A stretch of DNA of 64,000 nt from Chrysopilus asiliformis (Eukaryota > Arthropoda > Insecta > Diptera > Rhagionidae): the NCBI GenBank assembly GCA_964034945.1, contig OZ035960.1, positions 88,253,848 through 88,317,847 on the forward strand, in the 5' to 3' direction. The first letter of the stretch is position 1, and the number at the start of each line of letters is the position of its first letter. This document shows positions 17,638 through 63,430 of the stretch, piece after piece. The notes under the pieces are model-generated. The model was not told the origin of the DNA. It ran no database searches and worked only from the letters and a program-made list of their open reading frames with translations. A program made the translations under genes and the position numbers.

Positions 17638-17731
17638 AGTAAAACCTGTATAAGCGGGACTCGCACGGGACCAAAAAATTTGTCTGGCTTAGACAGATTT
17701 CCGGCTTACACATGATGGACCATCATAATAG
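17638..17731. repeat. Solo pogo/Tigger-like terminus
   Basis: 'CAGTAAAACCTGTATAAGCG' followed by 'gcttagacagatttccggct' resembles one end of a Tigger-like element. The partner end was not found. Confidence 0.35.
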
Positions 17732-19360
17732 AGGTGGTGAATTCCACACCAACTCATACTCGACTTGTATGGAGCTTGGAAGTCACCTCTGTTTTTTTAA
17801 CTTTTTTCATTTGGATGTTGTTAGGGACTTAAAAAAAAGTTACCCGTATTTTTTTGTTTGGCGGAATAACGCCCGGAAGGCGGAGGGGAGGGGGTCAAAG
17901 TCGGCGAAAACTGGAAATCACAAAAACTTTAAAAATTCGTAACTTCTGAACGACTTTACCGATTGTGATGATATTAAACATTTTGGAAAGGTAATTAAAT
18001 TACCTTGTCACGCAAAAATACTTTTTGACTCCCCCCCTCACTTTTATATTGTAAAATTCAATTTAGTGACAAAATTTAAAATATCTTGAGAAAGACATTT
18101 TTTTTTCTTTTGAAATTTTTTCTGTAAATACCTACCATTATACCATACAAATTCACTAAATAAAATTTGGGGGTAAATGCGTTGTTGATTTTTAAAAAAA
18201 TTTCAAAAAAATCGAATGCAAGAAAAATTTACATATTCTACTGATTTTCGATTGGTTTTTATGTTCTATGTACATAATATTAATGCAAAAGTTTTAGGAG
18301 ATTGAAATTAATTAAAAATTTATTTAAAAGAAAAAGTTTTAAATATATGGGGTGTACCCCCCTAATTGTCCATTTTTTGCGAATTACTCAAAAACGGTGC
18401 ATCTTATCAAAAAAGTCCAAGAACAAAAGTTATTTAGGATATGATTCTACATAAAACTTCCATACATCGATATCCGATTGGAATAAATTTTAAAAAATAT
18501 TGTTGAAAAGTTTGCCTTCAAAGTGAAATTTTGATACAACTGTTCGCCGTCAATCACCATACGGGTTTTGAAAAATTGCCAGATTGGCAATTATATCTTT
18601 TGTTAAGTTTAATTTGTAACACAGAGAGAATATGAGGTAAAACAACTTCAAAGAAGGTTTGAAAGTGTCAAAACACTTCCAGGATCTCAAAATTTTCACG
18701 GATTTATTCAAAACGGAAATTTTCTCAAAGTAAAAAAATTTTCTAATGGTGATATGTATATTTAAAACTTTTCTTTTAAATGAATTTCTAATTAATTTTA
18801 ATCTCCTAAAACTTTTGCAATAATATTATGTACATAAAACATAAAAACCAATCGAAAATCAGTAAAATATATGAAAAATTTTGTATTCGATTTTTTTTGA
18901 AATTTTTTTAAAAATCAACAACGCATTTACCCCCAAATTTTATTTAGCGAATTTGTAAGGTATAATGGTAGGTATTTACAGAAAAAATTTCAAAAGAAAA
19001 AAAAAATGTCTTTCTCAAGATATTTTAAATTTTGTCACTAAATTGAATTTTACAATATAAAAGTGAGGGGGGGAGTCAAAAAGTATTTTTGTGTGACAAG
19101 GTAATTTAATTACCTTTCCAAAATGTTTAATATCATCACAATCGGTAAAGCCGTTCAGAAGTTACGAATTTTTAAAGTTTTTGTGATTTCCAGTTTTCGC
19201 CGACTTTGACCCCCTCCCCTCCGCCTACCGGACGTTATTCCGCCAAACAAAAAAATACGGGTAACTTTTTTTTAAGTCCCTAACAACATCCAAATGAAAA
19301 AAGTTAAGAAATCGAACATGACTGTAAACGTGAGTATGAGTTGAGGTGGAGTTCACCAGG
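17732..19360. repeat. Large inverted repeat flanking a family B fragment
   Basis: The left arm of about 0.6 kb (17732-18345) is inverted at about 18760-19360. Pairing positions sum to 37104 (for example 17881 with 19223). Identity is very high in the inner 0.5 kb and drops toward the outer tips. The loop carries a partial family B copy (18350-18610) and AT-rich DNA. No gene is visible. A large foldback element is the best reading. Confidence 0.75.
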
Positions 19361-20010
19361 TATATTAGATTTAGTATACCGTTTGTAAAGCATCGAACCA
19401 ATCATCGAACACAAGGGTGTTAGGGATGACAAAAGATTTTGATTTCCGCATGTCCGTCCATCTCTCTGTCTGTCTGTCCATCTGTGTGTCCATCTGTCTG
19501 TCCGTCCATCTGTCTGTCAGCCTGTCTCTCTGTCCGTCTGTCTGTCTGTCCGTGAACACCATAACTTTCGAAAGGATTGAGCTAGAGACTTAAAATTTTG
19601 TATAGCTGCGTTTCTCGTAAATAGCAAAGATAAGTTCTTGAACGGGAAAAATTGAACCATTCTTTCCCCCTCCCCCATACAAACGAAACCATTTTTTTGC
19701 GATTTTCTTGAAAACGGCGATTCATATTGAGAAATTTTCTAAGAATAGGGCATAACTCACACATACATCAAATCCCAATCGAACCTATGCTTCCCCCCTC
19801 TCCCATTCAAATGAAGTACTTTTTTCCTGTTTTCTCGAAAACGGTGCATCGTATAGAAAAATTTATAATAATGAAATGTGTTTAGAATATGATTTTACAT
19901 AACTTATCCGTACATCAAAATCCAATCGGACCTCCCACATACAAATTGATTTTTTTTTCTATCTTCTCGAATACGGTGAGTCGTATTGAAAAATTTATAA
20001 AGGTAAAATC
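19361..20010 (-). repeat. Family A repeat, minus orientation, with a GTCY array
   Basis: Contains 'acacaagggtgttaggga', a GTCY run of about 105 bp at 19449-19553, 'ggattgagctagagactt', and two or three modules of about 145 bp, all inverted relative to 4565-5240. It directly adjoins the outer edge of the large inverted repeat. Confidence 0.7.
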
Positions 20011-22149: not shown

Positions 22150-22880
22150 CCTTGTAAGGATAACGGAAGGTCCTGTAAGGATAACGTGATTATCCTTTTC
22201 TCCAAATTTTCCGGAAAAAAATCTATTCTGGGGGTTTTTGGGGTCGCTGAATCCGAATCTGTCATTAAAAAATCAGTAAGGATAACGGAAGGTCCTGTAA
22301 GGATAACGTGATTATCCTTTTCTCCAAATTTTCCGGAAAAAAATCTATTCTGGGGGTTTTTGAGGTCACTGAATCCGAATCTGTCATTAAAAAGTCTGTA
22401 AGGATAACGGAAGGTCCTGTAAGGATAACGTGATTATCCTTTTCTCCAAATTTTCCGGAAAAAAATCTATTCTGGGGGTTTTTGAGGTCGCTAAATCCGA
22501 ATCTGCCATTAAAAAGTCTGTAAGGATAACGGAAGGTCCTGTAAGGATAACGTGATTATCCTTTTCTCCAAATTTTTCGGAAAAAAATCTATTCTGGGGG
22601 TTTTTGAGGTCGCTAAATCCGAATCTGCCATTAAAAAGTCTGTAAGGATAACGGAATGTCCTGTAAGGATAACGTGATTATCCCTTTCTCCAAATTTTCC
22701 GGAAAAAAATCTATTTTGGGGGTTTTTGGGGTCGCTGAATCCGAATCTGTCACTAAAAAGTCTGTAAGGATAACGGAAGGTCCTGTAAGGATAACGTGAT
22801 TATCCTTTTCTCCAAATTTTCCGGAAAAAATCTATTCTGGGGGTTTTTGGGGTCGCTGAATACGATTCTCAAGTTAAAAA
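22150..22880 (+). repeat. Tandem array, 122-bp unit, six copies
   Basis: The phrase 'ggaaggtcctgtaaggataa' starts at 22165, 22287, 22409, 22531, 22653 and 22775, exactly 122 bp apart. Each unit holds 'gtgattatcc', 'ccaaattttccggaaaaaaa', 'ctgggggtttttg' and 'ctgaatccgaatctg'. Copies differ by a few bases. Single diverged units occur at about 600, 8955-9100, 45540-45610 and 46055. Confidence 0.9.
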
Positions 22881-22958
22881 GCCTGTAAGGACATCTCAAA
22901 TGTAAGGATATATATTCGAAGACTAAAAAGAACAAAATAAAAAAAAATAAAAAAAAAA

Positions 22959-41212: not shown

Positions 41213-41648
41213 AGTGAACATTGAATATGTACAAATATAGAAGAATAATGATTAGTTTTCACCTTGGGCCGATGGTGGCGAAAGTGTCTGCGGTTCAAGT
41301 ATTAAATAAAAATCCCCCAAACTTAAAGCTTAGGTATGTGTATTAACTAAAATACCCTAAAACTTTAAGCACAATGGGAAATTTGTAATCGCAATGATCG
41401 CGGTTTATCATTGTGTGCTGTACGTGTTCAGTTCATTCCTCGTATGACACCATAAGAATCAACGCAAAACCGCTTTGCTTCTTAAATGTGTGCGTGCTTT
41501 TTGGTCTGGGATATTTGTGGGGAAATTCTCAATTTGAATCTAAACTAAAAGCTACAATATTACATAAAAATGATCACTATCGCCACCATCGGCCCAAGTT
41601 GAAAACTAATCATTATTCTTCTATATTTGTACATATTCAATGTAGTGA
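41213..41648. mobile_element. Foldback element with about 70-bp inverted arms
   Basis: 41217-41290 ('gaatatgtacaaatatagaa', 'gggccgatggtggcgaaagtg') is inverted at 41574-41645. The 97-codon frame between is not convincing. Confidence 0.6.
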
Positions 41649-43651: not shown

Positions 43652-44377
43652 ATGAGCAATAAAGTTGTAAAGCCTTCTGATGTTGCAGAAGTTCTTGCAG
43701 ACAACGTGAAAACTCCGGAGAAGGCCCCAATCAAGGTGGTAAAAAAGTCGCCGAAGAAGAAATTGCAGAAAAAGAGTGCTCCCAGGGCAGGATCGTCGAA
43801 AACTACTTTAGCCCTGATTTTGAACGCCATAAATCGTCTGGATAATGGAAAAGGGTCTTCTTTGATAGCTATTAAAAAATTTATGAAAGATGAAGATCCG
43901 AAGTACGGCTTGCAACGCAACCAATTGTTGATCCGGCGGTTCGTAAAGAAAGGAATTGCTGATGGGATTTTACAGACCAAAACACGTGGAGTTTCAGGGC
44001 GATTCAAGGTAGTTTCTGGAAAGTCTCAGAAAAAACAAAATGGAGTCGCATCGAAGCCGAGAAACAAATCGGATCCAAGCGCACCACGTGCAGTTAAGAA
44101 GTCCGGGGAGATTGTGAAGAGGGTAGCGAGCCCCCAAACGAGCAAGAAGGGAAAGCGCACGAATGAAGATGTCGGGGAAGTCGTGGCCAAGAAGAAAAAG
44201 GCAGTAGCAGCAGGCGCTTCCAAGAAGTCAACATCATCCAAAGGAAAATCCCGCGCCAAGTCAGCTGGGAAGAAGCTGGAGAAAAACAGGAAGTCTCCCA
44301 CTGCCCCGAAATCGCCGAAGATGAAGACCACCAAAGCTGGAATGGGGACAAAGAAGAAGGTGGCCTCGACGAAATAA
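43652..44377 (+). CDS. H1: Linker histone H1 (intronless, polyadenylated type)
   Basis: Binds nucleosomal linker DNA and compacts chromatin. The 241-residue protein has the expected order: a Lys/Pro-rich N-terminal tail (1-48), a globular H15 winged-helix domain (about 49-121, with TTLALILNAINRLDNGKG, SSLIAIKKFM and GVSGRFKV), and a Lys/Ala/Ser-rich C-terminal tail (about 122-241). Length is close to insect H1 proteins. ATG at 43652 follows acaaa and is the first in frame. There is no intron. The 3' flank lacks a histone-type stem-loop in the first 100 bp and has AATAAA at 44521, so the transcript is probably polyadenylated, like a replication-independent H1. It stands alone here rather than in a core-histone cluster. 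Its last 53 codons and 3' flank are duplicated at 46567-46916. Confidence 0.93.
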   Translation: MSNKVVKPSDVAEVLADNVKTPEKAPIKVVKKSPKKKLQKKSAPRAGSSKTTLALILNAINRLDNGKGSSLIAIKKFMKDEDPKYGLQRNQLLIRRFVKKGIADGILQTKTRGVSGRFKVVSGKSQKKQNGVASKPRNKSDPSAPRAVKKSGEIVKRVASPQTSKKGKRTNEDVGEVVAKKKKAVAAGASKKSTSSKGKSRAKSAGKKLEKNRKSPTAPKSPKMKTTKAGMGTKKKVASTK

Positions 44378-44564
44378 GAACATCTTTTATGCTTTTTTTT
44401 TTAAAAAATAATTTACTCGTAAAGTATATTTAAATTACTAAACTTTATCTATAATAGATAAGAAAATGTACAATGAATTCCATGGTTTTATGTTTTGAAT
44501 GAAGATTGTTTTTTTTTCTAAATAAAGAATTGACCAACCTTAATTGCACTGCGTTTTTATTGAA
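44378..44564 (+). terminator. H1 3' UTR with AATAAA, start of the duplicated 3' flank
   Basis: AATAAA at 44521-44526. The sequence is repeated almost unchanged at 46730-46916, and the match stops sharply at 44564/46916. No poly(A) tract sits at the copy's end, so a DNA-level duplication is favoured over a retrocopy. Confidence 0.7.
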
Positions 44565-44920
44565 TTCCTTAAAAATTAAATTTTTTCATTGCACTGGGGG
44601 TCCATTATGGAAATGGAATACGATCGTAACGATCGGGAATTGTCGGTTAACAGAAAACTAACAAGTTCCGGTCGTTACACCGCGTCTTGACCTGGGATTT
44701 TTCATCGCAGAGATTTTTGATTGACCAATCAGAGCTCGAGTTGACGGAGGGGAAAAATCCCAGAGAGAAATTTCTTGAAATCTTGCAATAGCAAAATTTC
44801 TTGGAATTTCACAATTCAAGATGGCGGAATCCAATTTCTCCCGACAAGTAATTGCAAAAATAACTAATTTTTACAAAATACGATACAAAAAGCTTTGGAA
44901 GAGAATATATAACATTAACG

Positions 44921-45050
44921 GCCAATTTATTCACTAGGAGTTAAATCGCCTTAACTCCCTTAACTCACCTTTAACATGGAAAATAACGTTAGCTAACTCC
45001 CTTAACTCACTAACTCGGCTTAACTCCTAGTGAATAAATTAGGGGTAAGG
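44921..45050. mobile_element. Miniature inverted-repeat element, 'TTTATTCACTAGGAGTTAA' family, copy 1
   Basis: Left 'ccaatttattcactaggagt', right its inverse 'actcctagtgaataaatt', with 'cttaactcccttaactca' repeats between. Two more copies, head to head, form the centre of the palindrome at 56005-56240. Confidence 0.75.
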
Positions 45051-46093: not shown

Positions 46094-46566
46094 AAGGCCT
46101 CTAATAAAGGGTGGTTAAATTTTAAGAGCCGATGTTGAATGTGAACCACACCTAAACGTGAAGTTTTTTTCTGCATTTCATTTGACATTTCTCAATTTCA
46201 GACTAACTCAATTTGAACCATGGAAAGATACACAATCGAGCAACGCAATAAAGTTATTCAGGCTTATTATGAAAATGGGCGTTCAAATCAAAATGCATAT
46301 CGTGCACTTCGTGATTTTTTCGGTCAATTTAATCGTCCAAATGTGCGTACAATCGGAAAAATCGTGCAAAAATTTGAGCAAACCGGGTCTGTAGGAGATG
46401 TGAAAACACCAGTGCATGCTCGTACAGCTCGTACTGCAGAAAATATTGCTGCTGTTCGCGATAGTGTGGCTGAAGAGCCGTCCACCTCAACTCGTCGTCG
46501 TGCCCAACAATTGCACCTCCCACGCTCGTCGTTGATGAACATTATGCATAAAGACTTGCATTTACA
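46094..46566 (+). mobile_element. 5' part of an IS630/Tc1-mariner-type transposon
   Basis: 'agggtggttaaattttaaga' looks like the terminal repeat, followed by a 110-bp leader and the transposase start at 46220. The element stops at 46566, where H1 sequence begins; its catalytic core and right end are missing. Confidence 0.65.
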
Positions 46567-46729
46567 CGCTTCCAAGAAGTCAACATCATCCAAAGGAAAA
46601 TCCCGCGCCAAGTCAGCTGGGAAGAAGCTGGAGAAAAACAGGAAGTCTCCCACTGCCCCGAAATCGCCGAAGATGAAGACCACCAAAGCTGGAATGGGGA
46701 CAAAGAAGAAGGTGGCCTCGACGAAATAA
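46220..46729 (+). CDS. Chimeric ORF: transposase HTH domain fused to the H1 tail
   Basis: 169 codons without interruption. Residues 1-116 are the N-terminal DNA-binding part of an insect IS630/Tc1-mariner-type transposase (MERYTIEQRNKVIQAYYENG, QKFEQTGSVGD, AEEPSTSTRRRAQQ), of the helix-turn-helix class known as DUF4817. Residues 117-169 are the last 53 residues of the H1 at 43652, starting SKKSTSSKGK, with the same nucleotides, stop codon and AATAAA. The join keeps frame. The ATG is the transposon's own start. All catalytic residues are absent, so it cannot transpose anything. If expressed it would be a sequence-specific HTH domain with a strongly basic chromatin-binding tail. Whether it is expressed is unknown; it may be a neutral, very young rearrangement. 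Confidence 0.7.
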   Translation: MERYTIEQRNKVIQAYYENGRSNQNAYRALRDFFGQFNRPNVRTIGKIVQKFEQTGSVGDVKTPVHARTARTAENIAAVRDSVAEEPSTSTRRRAQQLHLPRSSLMNIMHKDLHLHASKKSTSSKGKSRAKSAGKKLEKNRKSPTAPKSPKMKTTKAGMGTKKKVASTK

Positions 46730-47189: not shown

Positions 47190-48184
47190 TTCACCGTTTT
47201 CGAGAAAATGGCAAAAAAACTATTTTATTTCTATGGGGGAAGGGGGAAGGAGTGGTCCAACTAGATTTTGATGTATAGATAAGTTATTTTGTGTTTAATC
47301 ATGGTATAGTTTTTACGCGACCTTTCTAACATTGAATTCTATTCGAATTTCCCGGCTTATATTTAGAAGCTGGCAAAGCTGGCTCTGATGACAGTGAGTC
47401 AGCTTCCGTGCCAGAAACAGGCTCTAATAGGGTTTCGGGGCAAACATGCCTGACCTGTGGGGGGGAATTTTAGATGTGAAAAAATCCACAAAAATAATAT
47501 AACATTTTGTTATATTTTTTTTTAATGATCTATAAATCGGGAAATCCCAATAGATTTGATAAGTTGTGTAAAATCATATTATAAATACATTTTATCTTAA
47601 TAAATTTTTCGATACGATGTACAGTTTTCGAGAAAACGAGAAAAATGTATTCCATTTGTACGGGACAGGGAGAAAGCAGTGGTCCGTTTGGATTTTGATG
47701 TATGGATGAGTTATGTAAAATTTTATTCTAAACACATTTTATCTTAATAAATTTTTCAATATTGCTCATTGTTTTCGAGAAAATTGCAAAAAACTGCTTC
47801 GTTTGTATGGGGGAGGGGGAAGGAAAGATCCAATTTTGCCGAATTCAAGAATTTGGCCTAGCCGTTCACGAGAAACGCAACTGCACAAACTTTTAAGTCT
47901 CTAGCTCAATCCTTTCGAAAGTTATTGTGTTTTCGGATGGACAAATGTACGGACGCACAGACAAGCGAACAGACGACGGACAAACAAGCGAACAGACTGA
48001 CATACAAGCGGACAGACAGATGGACGGACATGCGGAAATCAAAATCTTTTGTCATCCCTAACACCCTGGTGTAACACATGGATCAATAAGTCCCGAGACT
48101 AACCCAGAGATGACGCTCGTAGTAAACCAGTAACCACGTCTTTCTAGAGTACTAACCTTTGCTTGAAACGTGTCAAAATTTTAA

Positions 48185-48643
48185 AAGCTGATTTACAATG
48201 AAGCAGCAACGCCAACAGCAACAGCAACGTCACGGAGAAAGTGTTTTGATTGGTCGAGAATCGACTCTTTGACGTCAGATTTTCAGAGAGATATTTTGCT
48301 GCCGATTCATTTCTAATCCTAAATTTGAGCAGCAACGCTAAGCAGCAACGTTGATAGCTGGTTTTTGTTGGTTATGTATACATGTGATTAACATTTTAGG
48401 AACGAATTTGGTGGCGAATTTTGTGTTTAAAATGAAGTTTAAGATTGTTAATTAATAAAAATTTAATTTAGGTAATCATGAAAGAAAGATTAATCCCCAA
48501 AAAACTTCTAACAATTCGGGAACGTCAATTTTTGCTGTTGCTGCTTCATTGTAATTCATCCGACAGCATTTCTCTTTTTGCCGTCGCTCTTTACGTCGAC
48601 GTTGCTGTTGCTGTTGGCGTTGCTGCTTCATTGTAAATTAGCC
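48185..48643. mobile_element. TTAA-flanked element nested in mariner (41-bp perfect inverted arms)
   Basis: Arms 48191-48231 and 48598-48638 are identical inverses, rich in 'cagcaacgccaacagcaac'. TTAA lies at 48181-48184 and 48644-48647. The tips differ slightly (AAGCTGATT versus GGCTAATT). There is no transposase, so it was probably moved in trans by a piggyBac-type enzyme. Confidence 0.88.
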
Positions 48644-48715
48644 TTAAGTCGATCGGACCAGAAACAGCTGAGTTATCGAGGTTGGAGTAAAGTCGTTTTG
48701 TAGTTTGTTTAAAAA

Positions 48716-49765
48716 ATGGAAAAAACCGAGTTTCGTGTTCTGATAAAACATTGTTTTTTAATGGGTAAAAACACCGTGCAAGCGAAACAATGGATTGAAA
48801 AATGTTACCCGGACTCTTGTCCATCAAAAGCAACGATTTGTCGGTGGTTTGCCGAGTTTAAACGTGGTCGTACCGACACAAATGACGCGGAACGCTCGGG
48901 TAGACCTGTGGAAGCCGTTACACCGGAAAATGTGAGTGAAGTGACAAAAATTATAATGAAAGATCGTAAAGTGAAGCTCCGTGAGATTGCTGAGATAACA
49001 CAGATATCATATGGAAGTGCATTTACTATCCTTCATGAAAAATTGAGCATGAAAAAGGTTTTTTCCAAGTGGGTGCCGCGATTGCTTTCGATGGAACAAA
49101 AACAGCAACGAGTCGATGATTCAGAAAGCTGTTTATCGCTATTTACTCGCAATAAAAAAGATTTCTTGCGTCGTTACGTGTCCATGGACGAAACATGGAT
49201 ACATCACTACACTCCAGAGTCGAAGCGGCAGTCATCTGAGTGGCGCACAGCTGGCGAAAGCCGTCCGAAGCGTCCGAAAACGCAGCAGTCAGCTGGCAAA
49301 GTCATGGCGTCAGTTTTTTGGGATACGCATGGCGTGATTTTCATTGACTACCTCGAAAAAGGTAAATCGATCAACAGTGATTATTATATTGACTTGCTGG
49401 TGCGTTTGAAGGAGGAAATCGCAAAAAAACGACCGCACATGCAGAGAAAAAAAATCCTTTTTCACCAAGACATTGCACCCTGCCACAAGTCGATGAAAAC
49501 AATGGCAAAATTGAACGAATTGGGCTTTCATCTGCTTCCCCACCCCCCATACTCGCCAGATTTAGCCCCCAGTGACTACTGGCTCTTTGCTGATCTTAAA
49601 AAAATGCTCCAGGGAAAAAGATTTGGCTCAAATGAGGAGGTCATCGCTGAAACTGAAGCTTATTTTGAAGCGAAAGATAATTTTTTTTATAAACATGGTA
49701 TTGAAAAATTGGAAAAGCGTTGGAACGATTGTATCACCCTAAAAGGTGATTATATTGATGAATAA
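48716..49765 (+). CDS. mariner transposase (irritans-type), intact frame
   Basis: Cut-and-paste DNA transposase that binds the element's terminal repeats and inserts at TA. 349 codons, the normal length for the family. The N-terminal paired HTH region spans about 1-110; the linker has WVPRLLSMEQKQQRVDD. The catalytic DDD triad appears complete: D158 in YVSMDETW, D252 in FHQDIAPCHKS and D287 in PDLAPSDYW, with 34 residues between the last two, as in mariners. Closest in style to the irritans subfamily (Himar1-like). One oddity is Ile after D252, where Asn is usual (QDNAP); this may lower activity. The nested TTAA element between the left end and the ATG may have separated the promoter from the frame. 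Confidence 0.95.
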   Translation: MEKTEFRVLIKHCFLMGKNTVQAKQWIEKCYPDSCPSKATICRWFAEFKRGRTDTNDAERSGRPVEAVTPENVSEVTKIIMKDRKVKLREIAEITQISYGSAFTILHEKLSMKKVFSKWVPRLLSMEQKQQRVDDSESCLSLFTRNKKDFLRRYVSMDETWIHHYTPESKRQSSEWRTAGESRPKRPKTQQSAGKVMASVFWDTHGVIFIDYLEKGKSINSDYYIDLLVRLKEEIAKKRPHMQRKKILFHQDIAPCHKSMKTMAKLNELGFHLLPHPPYSPDLAPSDYWLFADLKKMLQGKRFGSNEEVIAETEAYFEAKDNFFYKHGIEKLEKRWNDCITLKGDYIDE

Positions 49766-49905
49766 AAAAAAATTTGGCAAAAAAAATGTTGTTTTCATTG
49801 TTAGTCTCGGGACTTATTGATCCATGTGTTAGTTCATTTTTGTGTCCGATGTTTGGTTTGATGCGTTACAAACGGTATTCTAAATCTAATATACTCCTAT
49901 AGCAT

Positions 49906-52644: not shown

Positions 52645-53198
52645 TTGCGGTGTTTTCTAGTTAAGTTGAGGTTATCTACGGGTTTTCTGGATTTATTCGA
52701 AAATCTTACCTAAATATTCAATCACTTAATGCTCGTTAAATAATCTCACGTGGTAACGGCGAGGAATTGCGTTTTTAATCACTTGTTTACTGGCCTATGC
52801 AACAAATTGTGCAAATATTTCATCAGAAAAGTCTCAGCAGACTTTTGAAACGTAAAAAAAAAAATTGCCAGCAAATCGTGTTGTTAATGGGAAATTCCTT
52901 CGTTTTGGTTTAACGGAAGGAATATTTTCGGAAATCCAGGCAATGAAATGTCAAAATGTTGGATAATAAAGGGATATTCACACTTGCGTACAATGTGAAA
53001 AAAGTTTTGATTTTTCAAGAAATTTTTTGTAATTTTGCATTACAGATGATTTTATTTTATTGATAATTGCCCTAAAATATATGCGAAAAAGCTAATATTT
53101 TTTGTATTTAATTATAATTTTTTATTTCTAAAAAATTGCATTCAAAATTTTCATAACAATTTGCAAATTTCTGAACGCAACCCAAACCCTTACAAAAC
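52645..53198. promoter_or_regulatory. QARS upstream half of a former head-to-head promoter region
   Basis: 554 bp from the QARS start to the palindrome. The other 113 bp before Gdown1 lie at 59041-59153. Without the palindrome the two divergent genes would share about 670 bp. No individual element is called. Confidence 0.4.
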
Positions 53199-53519
53199 AC
53201 CGATGTGAAGTTAGCGACCAAGTTAGCGACCAACTTTTTTCGCTTAATCGCCACTAAGGGCGCTGCCAGTTTAGCCAATCATCTTTCTACAGCAACAACT
53301 TAGCGACCAAAATTTCGACTTATCTGCAGTTTATTTAAATATTTTAAATCACTTGTTCCGATGTGAAAATAAATATAAATTGAATATTTATGAATTGTTT
53401 CATTTGAAAAAACCCTCGATCAGCTTTTCTTCCGTACTGATCGAGTAAAAAAAACTTTTTTTTCAGGTATTAAATATGGAATTTTTAAATCAAATTGTTT
53501 TTTCTCAAAAACAAAACAT

Positions 53520-54520
53520 AACACCAGATTTAAATTTTCACAGATTGTAGTCCTCCTCAAGGGCTTTCTACCGCCGCCACCCCCATATCCGGGGGACTGG
53601 GAATAAGGGAGCAATTCCTCTTTTTGTATGAAAATATACAAATTTGTATGGAAACAACGACATTTTTAATCAAATATTTCTCGGAAACGAAAGATATCAC
53701 CAGATTTAAATTTTTACAGTTTGCAGTACTCCTCAGGGGCTTTCTATCGATACCACCCCCATATCCGGGTGACTAGGAATAAGGGAGGAATTAATCCTTT
53801 AAGCGGCCTGTTTTGTGAGTGAAACTGGTCGAAAAATGCAAAATTTTCTATGACATATTTCTCGGAAACGAGAAATATCACCAGATTGAAATTTTTACAG
53901 TTTGCAATACTCGTCAAGGGCTTTCTATCGGCATCACCCCCATACCCCGGGGACTAGGAATAAGGGAGGAATTAACCTTTTAAGCGGCCTGTTTTCTGAA
54001 TGAAACTGGTCGAAAAATGCGATATTTTTAATCAAATATTTCTTGAAAACAAGAAATATCACCCGATTTAAATTTTTATAGTTTGTAATCACTGCCAAGG
54101 GCTTTCTATTAGTACCACCCCCATATCCGGGGGACTAGGAATAAGGGAGGAATTAATCCTTTAAGCGGCCTGTTTTGTGAGTGAAACTGGTCGAAAAATG
54201 CAAAATTTTCTATGACATATTTCTCGGAAACGAGAAATATCACCAGATTGAAATTTTTACAGTTTGCAATACTCGTCAAGGGCTTTCTATCGGCACCACC
54301 CCCATACCCCGGGGACTAGGAATAAGGGAGGAATTAACCTTTTAAGCGGCCTGTTTTCTGAATGAAACTGGTCGAAAAATGCGATATTTTTAATCAAATA
54401 TTTCTTGAAAACAAGAAATATCACCCGATTTAAATTTTTATAGTTTGTAATCACTGCCAAGGGCTTTCTATTAGTACCACCCCCATATCCGGGGGACTAG
54501 GAATAAGGGAGAAATTAACC
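53520..54520. repeat. Tandem array of about 181 bp, six units, left arm
   Basis: 'gggctttcta' starts at 53561, 53738, 53918, 54099, 54280 and 54461. Units 3 and 5 are nearly identical to each other, as are 4 and 6, giving a 362-bp higher-order period. Each unit includes 'ggggactaggaataaggg' and 'aaactggtcgaaaaatgc'. Confidence 0.9.
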
Positions 54521-56004
54521 CTTTTGCTTCTTAAAAAATACTTGGTATAAGAATTAATTTCTCGCTGGCATTCGGCGAATCTTTTGCATTTGACTTGTTT
54601 AGGATTCAGGTATTTGCTAACCCGCGTTGCATGGAATTTTTGACACAAACCATTTTTGATTTGAGTGACGTTTGACATATAGAAATTCCCGCCAAAATGA
54701 AAATAAATTAAATTTGCAATTTTCCTAATTTCTAAAAGAGGAAAATGCTTCGTTTTTATGCGTATCTATTTTGCAGGTATTTTCCCGTAAAACAGGTAAA
54801 AATCTGTGAAGAAAACAGCCCGGGAAGGACGAAAATCAGGGAAAATCTGACGGTGCATATAGAAAGGGGAAATTCATTTTTTAATTTTTCTATTTTCTTC
54901 CCATTTAATGGATAAAATTGAATAGAAATTGGCATTTTCAAAGCGAATTTGCATTTTCTAATCAAATCCCACAATTTGTATTAAAAATCTTTCGAAAAAC
55001 TATGAAAACTTTTTGAATCAAATCAAGTTTACATTCGATGTTCATTTGCTTATCTTTCCATGTGAAAATTTCTTCGATTTTTTTAACGAAATTTTTCGAT
55101 TTTCCAAACGACTTATGCTAGAGATTTGAAATTTTGCACAAATGCGAGTTTCGTAAAAAGAAAGAATTGGTGAAAAAATGGGAAAAATCGGATAACTCCT
55201 TCCCCCCTTACCGCTGAAAATTGATGTATTTGGTGATTTTCTCGAAAACGGTTTACCACATCAAAAAAGTTTCAAAGAAAAAAGTGTTTAGAATACAATT
55301 CTACATAATTTACCCATATATCATAAATTCGACCGACCGATATTTATGATGTTTTATGTCGCTCAAAGATTTTCGATTTTCTTCGAAGATTTTTTCCATG
55401 GCAGATTTACCTGAAATCAATTTTTTCCAAAAATTCATATCTTTTGATCTGTTCATCGTAGATACAGACTATTTACACCAAAATGTAGGGAAATTGTCTG
55501 AAATTTTCAAAAAAAGTATCATAAGAAAAAAATTTCATGCAAATTTTTTCAGGGCGAGGCAAAGTTTCGGTAAATTCGAAAAAACTCATTTGTTTGGTTA
55601 CTTATTTCAATGATTTTTTTTACTATTAGATACTAAATATAATTCTCTACAACTTCTTTAAAGACATAAAGGTGGTATTTCAAACTGTTTTGGTGTTATG
55701 AACCGAAAACTGACCCGTAGTGGCAGAAATTTTATTGAAAAATTTAAAAAGGGGGGAAAGAGTGGTCAGTTTGAATTTTGATATATGGCTGAATTATGTA
55801 AAATTGTATTCTAACAAAATGGAATTTATGTATATAATTCAAAGCCTTGTGTACATGCAAAGGGTCGAATCATCGTAGCAAAGGGGATTATCGGGATATT
55901 TAGGATTTTGTAAAACATTTTTAAATAAACTAATATTTTATTTCAGTATCTACAATCATTCCCGTACAACTGCTTCTCGAATAATTGCATAACCCTTTTA
56001 CCCC

Positions 56005-56240
56005 TAATTTATTCACTAGGAGTTAAGCCGAGTTAGTGAGTTAAGGGAGTTAGCTAACCTTATTTTCCATGTTAAAGGTGAGTTAAGGGAGTTAAGGCGA
56101 TTTAACTCCTACGGCCAATTTATTCACTAGGAGTTAAATCGCCTTAACTCCCTTAACTCACCTTTAACATGGAAAATAAGGTTAGCTAACTCCCTTAACT
56201 CACTAACTCGGCTTAACTCCTAGTGAATAAATTAGGGGTA
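56005..56240. repeat. Two head-to-head miniature elements at the palindrome centre
   Basis: The right copy (from about 56112) is complete like 44921-45050. The left copy is its inverse but lacks the outermost 18 bp, which form the unpaired centre. Confidence 0.8.
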
Positions 56241-57718
56241 AAAGGGTTATGCAATTATTCGAGAAGCAGTTGTACGGGAATGATTGTAGATACTGAAATA
56301 AAATATTAGTTTATTTAAAAATGTTTTACAAAATCCTAAATATCCCGATAATCCCCTTTGCTACGATGATTCGACCCTTTGCATGTACACAAGGCTTTGA
56401 ATTATATACATAAATTCCATTTTGTTAGAATACAATTTTACATAATTCAGCCATATATCAAAATTCAAACTGACCACTCTTTCCCCCCTTTTTAAATTTT
56501 TCAATAAAATTTCTGCCACTACGGGTCAGTTTTCGGTTCATAACACCAAAACAGTTTGAAATACCACCTTTATGTCTTTAAAGAAGTTGTAGAGAATTAT
56601 ATTTAGTATCTAATAGTAAAAAAAATCATTGAAATAAGTAACCAAACAAATGAGTTTTTTCGAATTTACCGAAACTTTGCCTCGCCCTGAAAAAATTTGC
56701 ATGAAATTTTTTTCTTATGATACTTTTTTTGAAAATTTCAGACAATTTCCCTACATTTTGGTGTAAATAGTCTGTATCTACGATGAACAGATCAAAAGAT
56801 ATGAATTTTTGGAAAAAATTGATTTCAGGTAAATCTGCCATGGAAAAAATCTTCGAAGAAAATCGAAAATCTTTGAGCGACATAAAACATCATAAATATC
56901 GGTCGGTCGAATTTATGATATATGGGTAAATTATGTAGAATTGTATTCTAAACACTTTTTTCTTTGAAACTTTTTTGATGTGGTAAACCGTTTTCGAGAA
57001 AATCGCCAAATACATCAATTTTCAGCGGTAAGGGGGGAAGGAGTTATCCGATTTTTCCCATTTTTTCACCAATTCTTTCTTTTTACGAAACTCGCATTTG
57101 TGCAAAATTTCAAATCTCTAGCATAAGTCGTTTGGAAAATCGAAAAATTTCGTTAAAAAAATCGAAGAAATTTTCACATGGAAAGATAAGCAAATGAACA
57201 TCGAATGTAAACTTGATTTGATTCAAAAAGTTTTCATAGTTTTTCGAAAGATTTTTAATACAAATTGTGGGATTTGATTAGAAAATGCAAATTCGCTTTG
57301 AAAATGCCAATTTCTATTCAATTTTATCCATTAAATGGGAAGAAAATAGAAAAATTAAAAAATGAATTTCCCCTTTCTATATGCACCGTCAGATTTTCCC
57401 TGATTTTCGTCCTTCCCGGGCTGTTTTCTTCACAGATTTTTACCTGTTTTACGGGAAAATACCTGCAAAATAGATACGCATAAAAACGAAGCATTTTCCT
57501 CTTTTAGAAATTAGGAAAATTGCAAATTTAATTTATTTTCATTTTGGCGGGAATTTCTATATGTCAAACGTCACTCAAATCAAAAATGGTTTGTGTCAAA
57601 AATTCCATGCAACGCGGGTTAGCAAATACCTGAACCCTAAACAAGTCAAATGCAAAAGATTCGCCGAATGCCAGCGAGAAATTAATTCTTATACCAAGTA
57701 TTTTTTAAGAAGCAAAAG

Positions 57719-58720
57719 GGTTAATTTCTCCCTTATTCCTAGTCCCCCGGATATGGGGGTGGTACTAATAGAAAGCCCTTGGCAGTGATTACAAACTATA
57801 AAAATTTAAATCGGGTGATATTTCTTGTTTTCAAGAAATATTTGATTAAAAATATCGCATTTTTCGACCAGTTTCATTCAGAAAACAGGCCGCTTAAAAG
57901 GTTAATTCCTCCCTTATTCCTAGTCCCCGGGGTATGGGGGTGGTGCCGATAGAAAGCCCTTGACGAGTATTGCAAACTGTAAAAATTTCAATCTGGTGAT
58001 ATTTCTCGTTTCCGAGAAATATGTCATAGAAAATTTTGCATTTTTCGACCAGTTTCACTCACAAAACAGGCCGCTTAAAGGATTAATTCCTCCCTTATTC
58101 CTAGTCCCCCGGATATGGGGGTGGTACTAATAGAAAGCCCTTGGCAGTGATTACAAACTATAAAAATTTAAATCGGGTGATATTTCTTGTTTTCAAGAAA
58201 TATTTGATTAAAAATATCGCATTTTTCGACCAGTTTCATTCAGAAAACAGGCCGCTTAAAAGGTTAATTCCTCCCTTATTCCTAGTCCCCGGGGTATGGG
58301 GGTGATGCCGATAGAAAGCCCTTGACGAGTATTGCAAACTGTAAAAATTTCAATCTGGTGATATTTCTCGTTTCCGAGAAATATGTCATAGAAAATTTTG
58401 CATTTTTCGACCAGTTTCACTCACAAAACAGGCCGCTTAAAGGATTAATTCCTCCCTTATTCCTAGTCACCCGGATATGGGGGTGGTATCGATAGAAAGC
58501 CCCTGAGGAGTACTGCAAACTGTAAAAATTTAAATCTGGTGATATCTTTCGTTTCCGAGAAATATTTGATTAAAAATGTCGTTGTTTCCATACAAATTTG
58601 TATATTTTCATACAAAAAGAGGAATTGCTCCCTTATTCCCAGTCCCCCGGATATGGGGGTGGCGGCGGTAGAAAGCCCTTGAGGAGGACTACAATCTGTG
58701 AAAATTTAAATCTGGTGTTA
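57719..58720. repeat. Tandem array of about 181 bp, right arm (mirror)
   Basis: Exact mirror of the left array, with the same six units and 362-bp period. Short frames of 72-85 codons occur in both arms as mirror pairs and carry no domain. Confidence 0.9.
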
Positions 58721-59040
58721 TGTTTTGTTTTTGAGAAAAAACAATTTGATTTAAAAATTCCATATTTAATACCTGAAAAAAAAGTTTTTTTTACTCGATC
58801 AGTACGGAAGAAAAGCTGATCGAGGGTTTTTTCAAATGAAACAATTCATAAATATTCAATTTATATTTATTTTCACATCGGAACAAGTGATTTAAAATAT
58901 TTAAATAAACTGCAGATAAGTCGAAATTTTGGTCGCTAAGTTGTTGCTGTAGAAAGATGATTGGCTAAACTGGCAGCGCCCCTAGTGGCGATTAAGCGAA
59001 AAAAGTTGGTCGCTAACTTGGTCGCTAACTTCACATCGGT

Positions 59041-59153
59041 AAAACATAACCTCAAAATAGAACTGTCACTTTTATTTGTGCAACAACCGTTTTTTAGCCT
59101 GTGGAACAGATTTTTCAGAATTTCTCAATTAAATCAATGAATAATATAACAAG
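59041..59153 (+). promoter_or_regulatory. Gdown1 upstream remnant
   Basis: Only 113 bp separate the palindrome from the Gdown1 ATG. The former shared promoter is now mostly on the far side of the insertion. Confidence 0.35.
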
Positions 59154-61379: not shown

Positions 61380-63430
61380 ACTTGAGAACTGTAAAAGATA
61401 TCAATTTACGGTAAATGGATAAAAAGGTAGAAAATGTTAACATCTTTAATTATTCTTTTAACTGATTTGTCGAAAAACCGTTAGTTTGCAAATTATTCGC
61501 AAAAATATGATTTTTTTACATATTAATGAAAATATCTCAATAACGGTAAAAGATACCGGATAACGGTAAGAAACAAAATTGTGCAGAATGCCATTCTCAT
61601 TAATTCACTTCATACATTCAGTCAGCAAAAACCCGTTAGTTTTCGAGATAATCGCAAAAAACTGTTTTTTTTTTTTTTTTGGAAATAACGGTTTATCTCG
61701 ATAACTGGTGGAGATATCGAGTTATAGCTAAAGACAAAAGTGTGGGAAATTTTATTTTCTCCAAGTTTTGTCATACTTAAGGCCACTAAAAAACGCGTAG
61801 TTTGGGAGTAAATCGAGAAAAACGAAATTGCGATTTTTGAAAAATCGCCATTTTGGATACTTCCGGTTAACGGATTTCCACCAAAAGTTGATAGGATCGT
61901 CCCATTTCAGGACCCAACATGCCTATAAAATTTCATGGCGCTAGCTCTATTAGTTTTTGAGAAATATTGTACACAGACTGACAGACAGACTGACAGACTG
62001 ACAGACTGACAGACTGACAGACTGACAGACTGACAGACTGACAGACTGACAGACTGACAGACTGACAGACTGACAGACTGACAGACTGACAGACTGACAG
62101 ACTGACAGACTGACAGACTGACAGACTGACAGACTGACAGACTGACAGACAGACTGACAGACTGACAGACAGACTGACAGACAGACTGACAGACAGACTG
62201 ACAGACAGACTGACAGACAGACTGACAGACAGACTGACAGACAGACTGACAGACAGACTGACAGACAGACTGACAGACAGACTGACAGACAGACTGACAG
62301 ACAGACTGACAGACAGACTGACAGACAGACTGACAGACAGACTGACAGACAGACTGACAGACAGACTGACAGACAGACTGACAGACAGACTGACAGACAG
62401 ACTGACAGACAGACTGACAGACAGACTGACAGACAGACTGACAGACAGACTGACAGACAGACTGACAGACAGACTGACAGACAGACTGACAGACAGACTG
62501 ACAGACAGACTGACAGACAGACTGACAGACAGACTGGCAGACAGACTGACAGACAGACTGACAGACAGACTGACAGACAGACTGACAGATAGACTGACAG
62601 ACAGACTGACAGACAGACTGACAGACAGACTGACAGACAGACTGACAGACAGACTGACAGACAGACTGACAGACAGACTGACAGACAGACTGACAGACAG
62701 ACTGACAGACAGACTGACAGACAGACTGACAGACAGACTGACAGACAGACTGACAGACAGACTGACAGACAGACTGACAGACAGACTGACAGACAGACTG
62801 ACAGACAGACTGACAGACAGACTGACAGACAGACTGACAGACAGACTGACAGACAGACTGACAGACAGACTGACAGACAGACTGACAGACAGACTGACAG
62901 ACACTCTCACAGACAGACTGACAGACAGACTGACAGACAGACTGACAGACAGACTGACAGACAGACTGACAGACAGACTGACAGACTGACAGACTGACAG
63001 ACTGACAGACAGACTGACAGACTGACAGACTGACAGACTGACAGACAGACTGACAGACAGACTGACAGACAGACTGACAGACAGACTGACAGACAGACTG
63101 ACAGACAGACTGACAGACTGACAGACTGACAGACTGACAGACAGACTGACAGACAGACAGACAGACTGACAGACAGACTGACAGACAGACTGACAGACAG
63201 ACTGACAGACAGACTGACAGACAGACTGACAGACAGACTGACAGACAGACTGACAGACTGACAGACAGACTGACAGACAGACTGACAGACAGACTGACAG
63301 ACAGAAAGACATTTTTTAAATATGACTCCAATCGACTCAGGAGTGAGCGGGAAATGTTTTTTAGGCAAAATTAAGAGGTCGAAATTTTTCATGAATACAA
63401 TACTTTATTATACTCCGTAGAAGAAAGTAA
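61380..63430 (+). repeat. Family C repeat (copy 4) with a hugely expanded microsatellite
   Basis: The 5' part (61380-61970) parallels 21480-21960, including 'ggatcgtcccatttcaggac'. The 3' part (63315-63430) parallels 23214-23340. The core between is the array at 61974-63304, which is only about 35 bp in the 21950 copy. Confidence 0.8.
61974..63304 (+). repeat. (CTGACAGA)/(CTGACAGACAGA) microsatellite, about 1.33 kb
   Basis: An 8-bp unit (ACTGACAG) prevails to about 62150, then a 12-bp unit (ACTGACAGACAG) for about 850 bp with rare substitutions (62537 g, 62590 t, 62903-62908 altered), then a mixture. All frames stay open because neither unit contains a stop on the minus strand, giving artefactual frames of up to 474 codons. 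Confidence 0.97.

What the first reader, a model, noticed from the sequence alone, without database searches (positions are those of the whole stretch)
53199..59040. A 5.84-kb near-perfect palindrome inserted between two housekeeping genes
Arms of about 2.9 kb are inverse copies with one mismatch seen, an 18-bp unpaired centre, and AAAAC on both outer sides. The 5-bp flanking repeat suggests a transposition-like insertion rather than a chance inversion. The arms contain tandem repeats, as in foldback elements, but the tips and 5-bp duplication do not match the 9-bp duplication of Drosophila FB that I know of. It may be an undescribed foldback family. An assembly artefact (collapsed hairpin read) is the main alternative.
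Basis: partly seen in the sequence, partly recalled or inferred. Interest (0 to 1): 0.88.

Follow-up and report, generated by a model that had tools for sequence, protein, structure and literature searches.

The report
Young fly foldback transposon, palindrome re-formed
A 5.8-kb DNA palindrome next to two fly genes is a real mobile element, one member of a young foldback transposon family in this genome, and its midpoint sits exactly at the end of a second, smaller transposon, which hints at how such huge palindromes can be made.

Summary
The palindrome is real: arms 53199-56111 and 56128-59040, 2,913 nt each, three mismatches, 16-nt centre. An assembly artefact is unlikely and the element is not alone: the same 429-Mb fly genome holds a family of them. 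Of 26 paired copies read, 19 have 8-9 bp target duplications; the window copy has AAAAC (5 bp), best read as a damaged 8-bp duplication. So "5-bp foldback family" is wrong; "foldback-type transposon" is right. The fullest sister copy is itself a near-perfect palindrome: 2,949-nt arms, 54-nt loop. The window copy lost that centre; its axis lies at the terminus of a PIF/Harbinger-type MITE (127 bp; TAA duplication in 12 of 12 copies fetched; 40 perfect places listed, its own included). The MITE's empty site is intact in three sister copies. Best explanation: a non-autonomous foldback element moved in trans; a break at the end of the nested MITE was repaired by copying the opposite arm, re-forming the palindrome (inferred). 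The transposase was not found; TSD length suggests Mutator-like.

The parts
53194..53198 (.). left flank AAAAC, probably the remnant of an 8-bp target site duplication (inferred)
   Evidence: family TSD 8-9 bp in 19 of 26 pairs
53199..53500 (+). left tip domain; terminal ACCGATGTGAAG, tandem AAGTTAGCGACC x2, second CCGATGTGAA at 53358 (possible transposase binding sites, inferred)
53501..54524 (+). 181-bp tandem array in left arm (higher-order period 362)
54525..55998 (+). inner part of left arm, contains an inverted-repeat stretch 55288-55814 with relatives elsewhere in the window
55999..56111 (-). mirror copy of the PIF/Harbinger-type MITE, lacking its last 16 nt at the axis
56112..56127 (.). 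16-nt unpaired centre = first 16 nt of the MITE
56112..56240 (+). MITE in right arm, complete (129 nt matched, including TA of the TSD at its outer end); 128 of 129 identical to the copy at 44919-45047
56128..59040 (-). right arm (mirror of left arm; carries the state of the other copies at the three mismatches)
59041..59045 (.). right flank AAAAC

Best explanation
It is one copy of a young, non-autonomous foldback (long terminal inverted repeat) DNA transposon family in a dipteran fly genome. The fullest copies are near-perfect palindromes of about 2.95-kb arms round a 54-nt loop; they carry only ends and tandem repeats, and are cut and pasted by a transposase encoded elsewhere, normally leaving an 8-bp target duplication (shown: anatomy, copies, TSDs; inferred: transposase in trans, perhaps Mutator-like). 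In the window copy a PIF/Harbinger-type MITE inserted into a TTA site near the inner end of one arm (shown by the empty site in three sister copies). A break then arose at the MITE's inner end, the old loop and inner arm ends were lost, and the gap was filled by copying the MITE-bearing arm in inverted orientation to within 16 nt of the MITE end, giving a new near-perfect axis (inferred). A small deletion at one outer junction probably cut the 8-bp TSD to AAAAC (inferred). The confidence given is for the foldback-family reading and the order of events; the repair-in-place step alone I put at about one half.
For: Tip found 16 times exactly and 55+55 times with up to 3 mismatches in the genome, against 4+7 for the reversed control (the mismatch count includes a sister tip family). 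19 of 26 paired copies carry 8-9 bp TSDs at different sites. No ORF of 110 aa or more in the window copy; the one arm ORF tested has no Pfam hit. L016 has 1 mismatch in 1,980 outer and 0 in 975 inner arm positions round the 54-nt loop, interrupted by a 1,125-nt insertion. L009, L013 and L016 read CCCTTTTA|AGTGCAACAG where the window arm reads CCCTTTTA|CCCC(MITE). The MITE is in the window element alone of 29 paired loci compared, sister family included; 40 places in the genome, the window's right arm among them, are 129/129 identical (40 scored of 782 candidates), with TAA on both sides in 12 of 12 fetched. The three arm mismatches are private to the left arm; the right arm, which holds the complete MITE, has the base of the other copies at each.
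Against: No transposase was recognised inside any paired copy; the one coding-looking ORF (L029) belongs to a high-copy element of its own. The window copy's flanking repeat is 5 bp, not 8. Seven of 26 pairs, the window copy among them, lack an 8-bp TSD, so some copies may be recombinants. Arms are not clearly more alike within than between copies (14 of 24 for the tip domain, 8 of 14 for the inner domain), so youth alone may explain the near-perfection. Repair by inverted copying is inferred from one junction with only 1 nt of shared sequence. Nine of 72 tip places with at most two mismatches listed were not fetched.
Confidence: 0.85

Rival explanations
1. Snap-back and move (a rival to the repair-in-place step only): the MITE-bearing arm broke at the MITE end, the 3' end folded back and primed its own copying (hairpin intermediate), and the resulting palindromic element then transposed to this site.
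For: [quoted passage not shown] 'large' there means 15 nt or more) (PMC7467729, passages read); the axis loop here is 16 nt; symmetry ends exactly at the tips.
Against: Only 1 nt of pairing at the turn (cta|CGGCC against the usual TAA|CGGCC); no second copy with the MITE axis among 29 paired loci compared, though not every tip was read.
Confidence: 0.3
2. Assembly artefact: an unsplit hairpin read or a duplicated arm.
For: Near-perfect palindromes are the classical product of unsplit hairpin reads (recalled); no reads were available to me.
Against: Different flanks with a gene on each side; the mismatches are three transitions, no indels, and private to one arm; sister copies with the same arms elsewhere with TSDs.
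Confidence: 0.03
3. An undescribed foldback family with 5-bp target duplications.
For: AAAAC at both sides; chance 0.0021. Another, 426-bp element in the window (41218-41643) does have a 5-bp duplication AGTGA.
Against: 19 of 26 family pairs have 8-9 bp; none but the window copy has 5.
Confidence: 0.03
4. The copy is a recombinant of two copies (ectopic exchange), and AAAAC is chance.
For: Five of 26 pairs show 0-2 bp of flanking match; chimeric Galileo copies likewise lack matching flanks (PMC3573991, passages read).
Against: A 5-bp match is expected in 0.2%; both arms are nearly identical and equally close to a sister copy (98.15 and 98.26% to the L013 left arm).
Confidence: 0.1

Closest known systems
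Tetris foldback transposon of Drosophila virilis (PMC4079207; abstract and passages read)
   Same: Non-autonomous, long terminal inverted repeats with internal tandem repeats (about 220 bp there, 181 bp here), no autonomous copy found, 8-10 bp TSD there and 8-9 bp here.
   Different: A variable non-coding middle domain there; here, in the window copy and L016, the inverted repeat reaches a 16-nt or 54-nt loop. Sequence relation not tested.
Galileo (P superfamily) of Drosophila (PMC3573991; first part of the discussion and passages read)
   Same: Two-TIR copies, about 210-bp tandem repeats inside the TIR, TIR extension explained by break repair from the other TIR.
   Different: 7-bp TSD; longest TIRs in the passages read about 1.26 kb, against about 2.9 kb here; P-type transposase known.
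Drosophila FB/FB4 foldback elements
   Same: Long repetitive inverted arms (recalled).
   Different: 9-bp TSD (recalled, and so given in the finding); end sequences not compared here.
Mu killer of maize (PMC3440606; abstract and passages read)
   Same: An inverted duplication of one transposon end with two TIRs from the same end beside a host gene; could yield hairpin RNA if transcribed.
   Different: Mu killer duplicates transposase sequence and silences MuDR; no coding sequence and no RNA evidence here.
PIF/Harbinger-type MITEs (class recalled; 3-bp TSD of the superfamily also in the abstract of PMC2213677, listing)
   Same: Central 127-bp element with inverted ends and TAA target duplication.
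   Different: Its autonomous partner was not sought.

Membership tests
Foldback-like elements (structural class) | Long terminal inverted repeats making up most of the element | tested here: met
   Arms of 2,913 nt in the window copy; long inverted arms in most of the 29 paired loci, less so in L024, L027, L028 and L039; L032 has an 18-nt ungapped end but inner inverted arms of about 1.8 kb at 93%
Foldback-like elements (structural class) | Tandem repeats inside the arms | tested here: met
   181-bp array; repeated off-diagonal matches in L009-L018
Foldback-like elements (structural class) | Target site duplication | tested here: met
   8-9 bp in 19 of 26 paired copies; the window copy itself only 5 bp
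Drosophila FB | 9-bp TSD | tested here: not met
   8 bp in 18 and 9 bp in 1 of 26 pairs; the 9-bp figure for FB is recalled
Drosophila FB | FB end sequence | not tested
   no FB sequence was held or compared
Galileo / P superfamily | 7-bp TSD | tested here: not met
   no 7-bp match among the 26 pairs
Galileo / P superfamily | P-type transposase | not tested
   no P-family search was run
Mutator superfamily | MULE transposase between matching tips | not tested
   PF10551 genome search did not complete; long ORFs of the pairs were looked at by eye only
Mutator superfamily | TSD of 8-10 bp | tested here: met
   sister tip family 9 bp in 3 of 4
PIF/Harbinger-type MITE (central element) | 3-bp TWA target duplication | tested here: met
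   TAA both sides in 12 of 12 fetched copies and at 44919
PIF/Harbinger-type MITE (central element) | mobilised by a Harbinger transposase | not tested
   no search run

The most novel reading that the evidence does not exclude
Cutting at the end of a freshly nested MITE drives re-formation of a kilobase-scale perfect palindrome inside a foldback transposon: the DNA end left by one transposase becomes the axis made by the host's repair. Repeated use of this route would explain how foldback elements gain and keep near-perfect arms, and such palindromes beside promoters could act as hairpin-RNA sources that silence their own kin.
Probability: 0.3. Interest if true: 0.6.

Novelty: new member of a known kind. 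Interest (0 to 1): 0.42.

Why it matters
Autonomous partners of foldback elements are often missing (Tetris). Here is a young family with many closely similar copies and clean target duplications, at least two of them (the window copy and L016) with near-perfect arms of about 2.9 kb that evidently persist in a fly germline. The window copy adds an ordered sequence of events (foldback element, MITE insertion, axis re-formation) with the empty MITE site still readable in sister copies, so the question of how foldback arms grow and stay identical can be tested on real junctions.

Tried and rejected
Tip 20-mer in viral contigs and genome contigs: 0 exact hits each; array 32-mer in viral contigs: 0. 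Arm ORFs as proteins (54451-54765 minus, 55350-55610 plus): no candidate shares three words. Rfam on the window: nothing at gathering score. ARAGORN: no tRNA. The L029 ORF was considered as the missing transposase and rejected: it is one of 150 scored matches (561 candidates) of a high-copy element, and of the matches listed only the L029 copy lies in a tip pair that I fetched (compared by eye with the list). Concerted evolution of arms was tested and not established (L032, L043 and the sister family were left out, and the inner domain was found on both arms of only 14 copies). The PF10551 search and a DNA search with part of L032 never ran. Paper searches (one search found no paper) showed no foldback family with 5-bp TSD in the titles, abstract openings and passages seen; nothing wider is claimed.
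Full report
Observation. The window holds an inverted repeat of 2,913 nt per arm (53199-56111 and 56128-59040) with three mismatches and a 16-nt centre. Chance is not an option. AAAAC stands outside both tips, and the symmetry stops at the first base beyond them. A random pair of 5-mers from outside the element matches with probability 0.0021.

Setting. The genome is that of a fly (inferred): the best-scoring named relatives of the glutaminyl-tRNA synthetase piece are hoverflies at 79-80% identity, other flies follow closely, and an unnamed sequence reaches 84%. The element lies 555 bp from that gene's first ATG and 113 bp upstream of the likely start codon of a gene with the GCOM2 domain on the other strand. 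The species was not determined.

The family. The terminal 20-mer occurs 16 times exactly in the 429-Mb assembly and 55+55 times with up to three mismatches, against 4+7 for the reversed control; those counts include a sister tip family, and only the first places were listed. Of the 72 places listed with at most two mismatches, nine were not fetched. I read 26 paired copies with this tip, counting the window's: 19 have target duplications of 8 bp (18) or 9 bp (L014), the window copy 5, L023 4, L027 2, and L020, L026, L028 and L033+L034 none. Among the 19, L010's is a run of eight A and one tip of L043 has five mismatches to the commoner tip. One doubtful pair (L045, one tip with five mismatches, no duplication) was left out, and eight further loci with a tip but no clear partner in the stretch read (L017, L040-L042, L044, L046-L048; L041 was not tested for a partner) were not counted. 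The sister family (tip ACTCATGTGAAG) has 9-bp duplications in 3 of 4 pairs. The family is therefore a foldback-type transposon with 8-9 bp duplications; the 5 bp of the window copy is an exception that a 3-bp deletion at one junction would explain (inference).

Native structure. L016 has arms of 2,949 nt round a 54-nt loop: 1 mismatch in 1,980 outer positions and 0 in 975 inner positions, with a 1,125-nt insertion in one arm. L013 has the same loop and lacks the inner part of one arm; L009 has the same loop with 97 paired positions beside it. A near-perfect palindrome is thus found in the family and is not peculiar to the window; most other copies have unequal or interrupted arms. Copies are young: stretches of L013 and L016 are 99.4-99.7% identical, the window arms 98.15 and 98.26% identical to L013's left arm. 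Arms within a copy were at least as alike as their best match elsewhere in 14 of 24 (tip domain) and 8 of 14 (inner domain) cases, which does not prove homogenisation.

What is special here. The axis of the window copy lies inside the end of a 127-bp MITE. A copy at 44919-45047 differs at 1 of 129 positions; 40 places in the genome, the window's right arm among them, match all 129 (40 scored of 782 candidates), and 12 of 12 fetched copies stand between TAA duplications. In L009, L013 and L016 the insertion site is empty (CCCTTTTA|AGTGCAACAG), while the window arm continues CCCTTTTA into the MITE. None of the other 28 paired loci compared, sister family included, has the MITE. In the right arm the MITE is complete, but is preceded by CTA instead of TAA; in the left arm it stops 16 nt short. 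The old loop and the inner arm ends are gone. The three arm differences are private to the left arm; the right arm has the base of the other copies at each (5 of 5, 27 of 27 and 31 of 31 arm readings in which the 51-base neighbourhood was found). Both asymmetries agree with the right arm as template and the left as copy, though three changes on one side can be chance.

Mechanism. Shown: transposon anatomy, copies, duplications, the order foldback element, then MITE, then new axis. Inferred: a break at the MITE terminus, perhaps an aborted MITE excision, repaired by copying the opposite arm. Repair of one TIR from the other has been proposed for Galileo (PMC3573991, discussion part 1 and passages), template switching for Pack-TIRs including Ssk-FB4 (PMC8277862, passages), and hairpin-primed inversions are described in yeast (PMC7467729, passages). 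The transposase was not found. TSD length fits the Mutator superfamily, to which Tetris was assigned on the same ground (PMC4079207, abstract and passages); Tm1, Mutator-like, has 9 bp (PMC3169594, passages). This remains a guess.

Verdict. A real element, a new family of a known kind, with one instructive rearrangement.

Noticed in passing
window 46217-46729: A 170-aa open frame joins a transposase-like N-terminal stretch (label by eye, no family search) in frame to a 98.9% copy of the linker-histone C-terminal region and 3' part found at 44215-44564.
   Followed up: partly
window 48072-49831: A mariner element with 32-nt perfect ends and an open 350-aa transposase frame (48713-49762); another inverted-repeat stretch (48191-48638) lies in its 5' part.
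   Followed up: partly
window 41218-41643: A 426-bp element with 69-nt inverted ends (ACATTG...CAATGT) and a 5-bp direct flank repeat AGTGA; no match to the palindrome arm at E 1e-3.
   Followed up: partly
window 17726-19367: A second large inverted repeat, arms about 620 nt at 92%, possibly another foldback-like element.
   Followed up: no
window 61973-63305 and 22153-22891: A 12-bp array of about 112 copies and a 122-bp array of about 6 copies.
   Followed up: no
L041 (about 1730-1800): The stretch ACCGATGTGAAGTT of the transposon tip stands three times close together at one end.
   Followed up: no
L036, L035, L037+L038, L039: A sister family with tip ACTCATGTGAAGTTGGCGAC and 9-bp duplications in 3 of 4; L036 (no duplication) is an 819-bp inverted repeat from end to end (95.9%).
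   Followed up: partly
L029:3595-4008: A 138-aa frame of an abundant element (150 matches scored of 561 candidates) with no Pfam match above its cut-off.
   Followed up: partly
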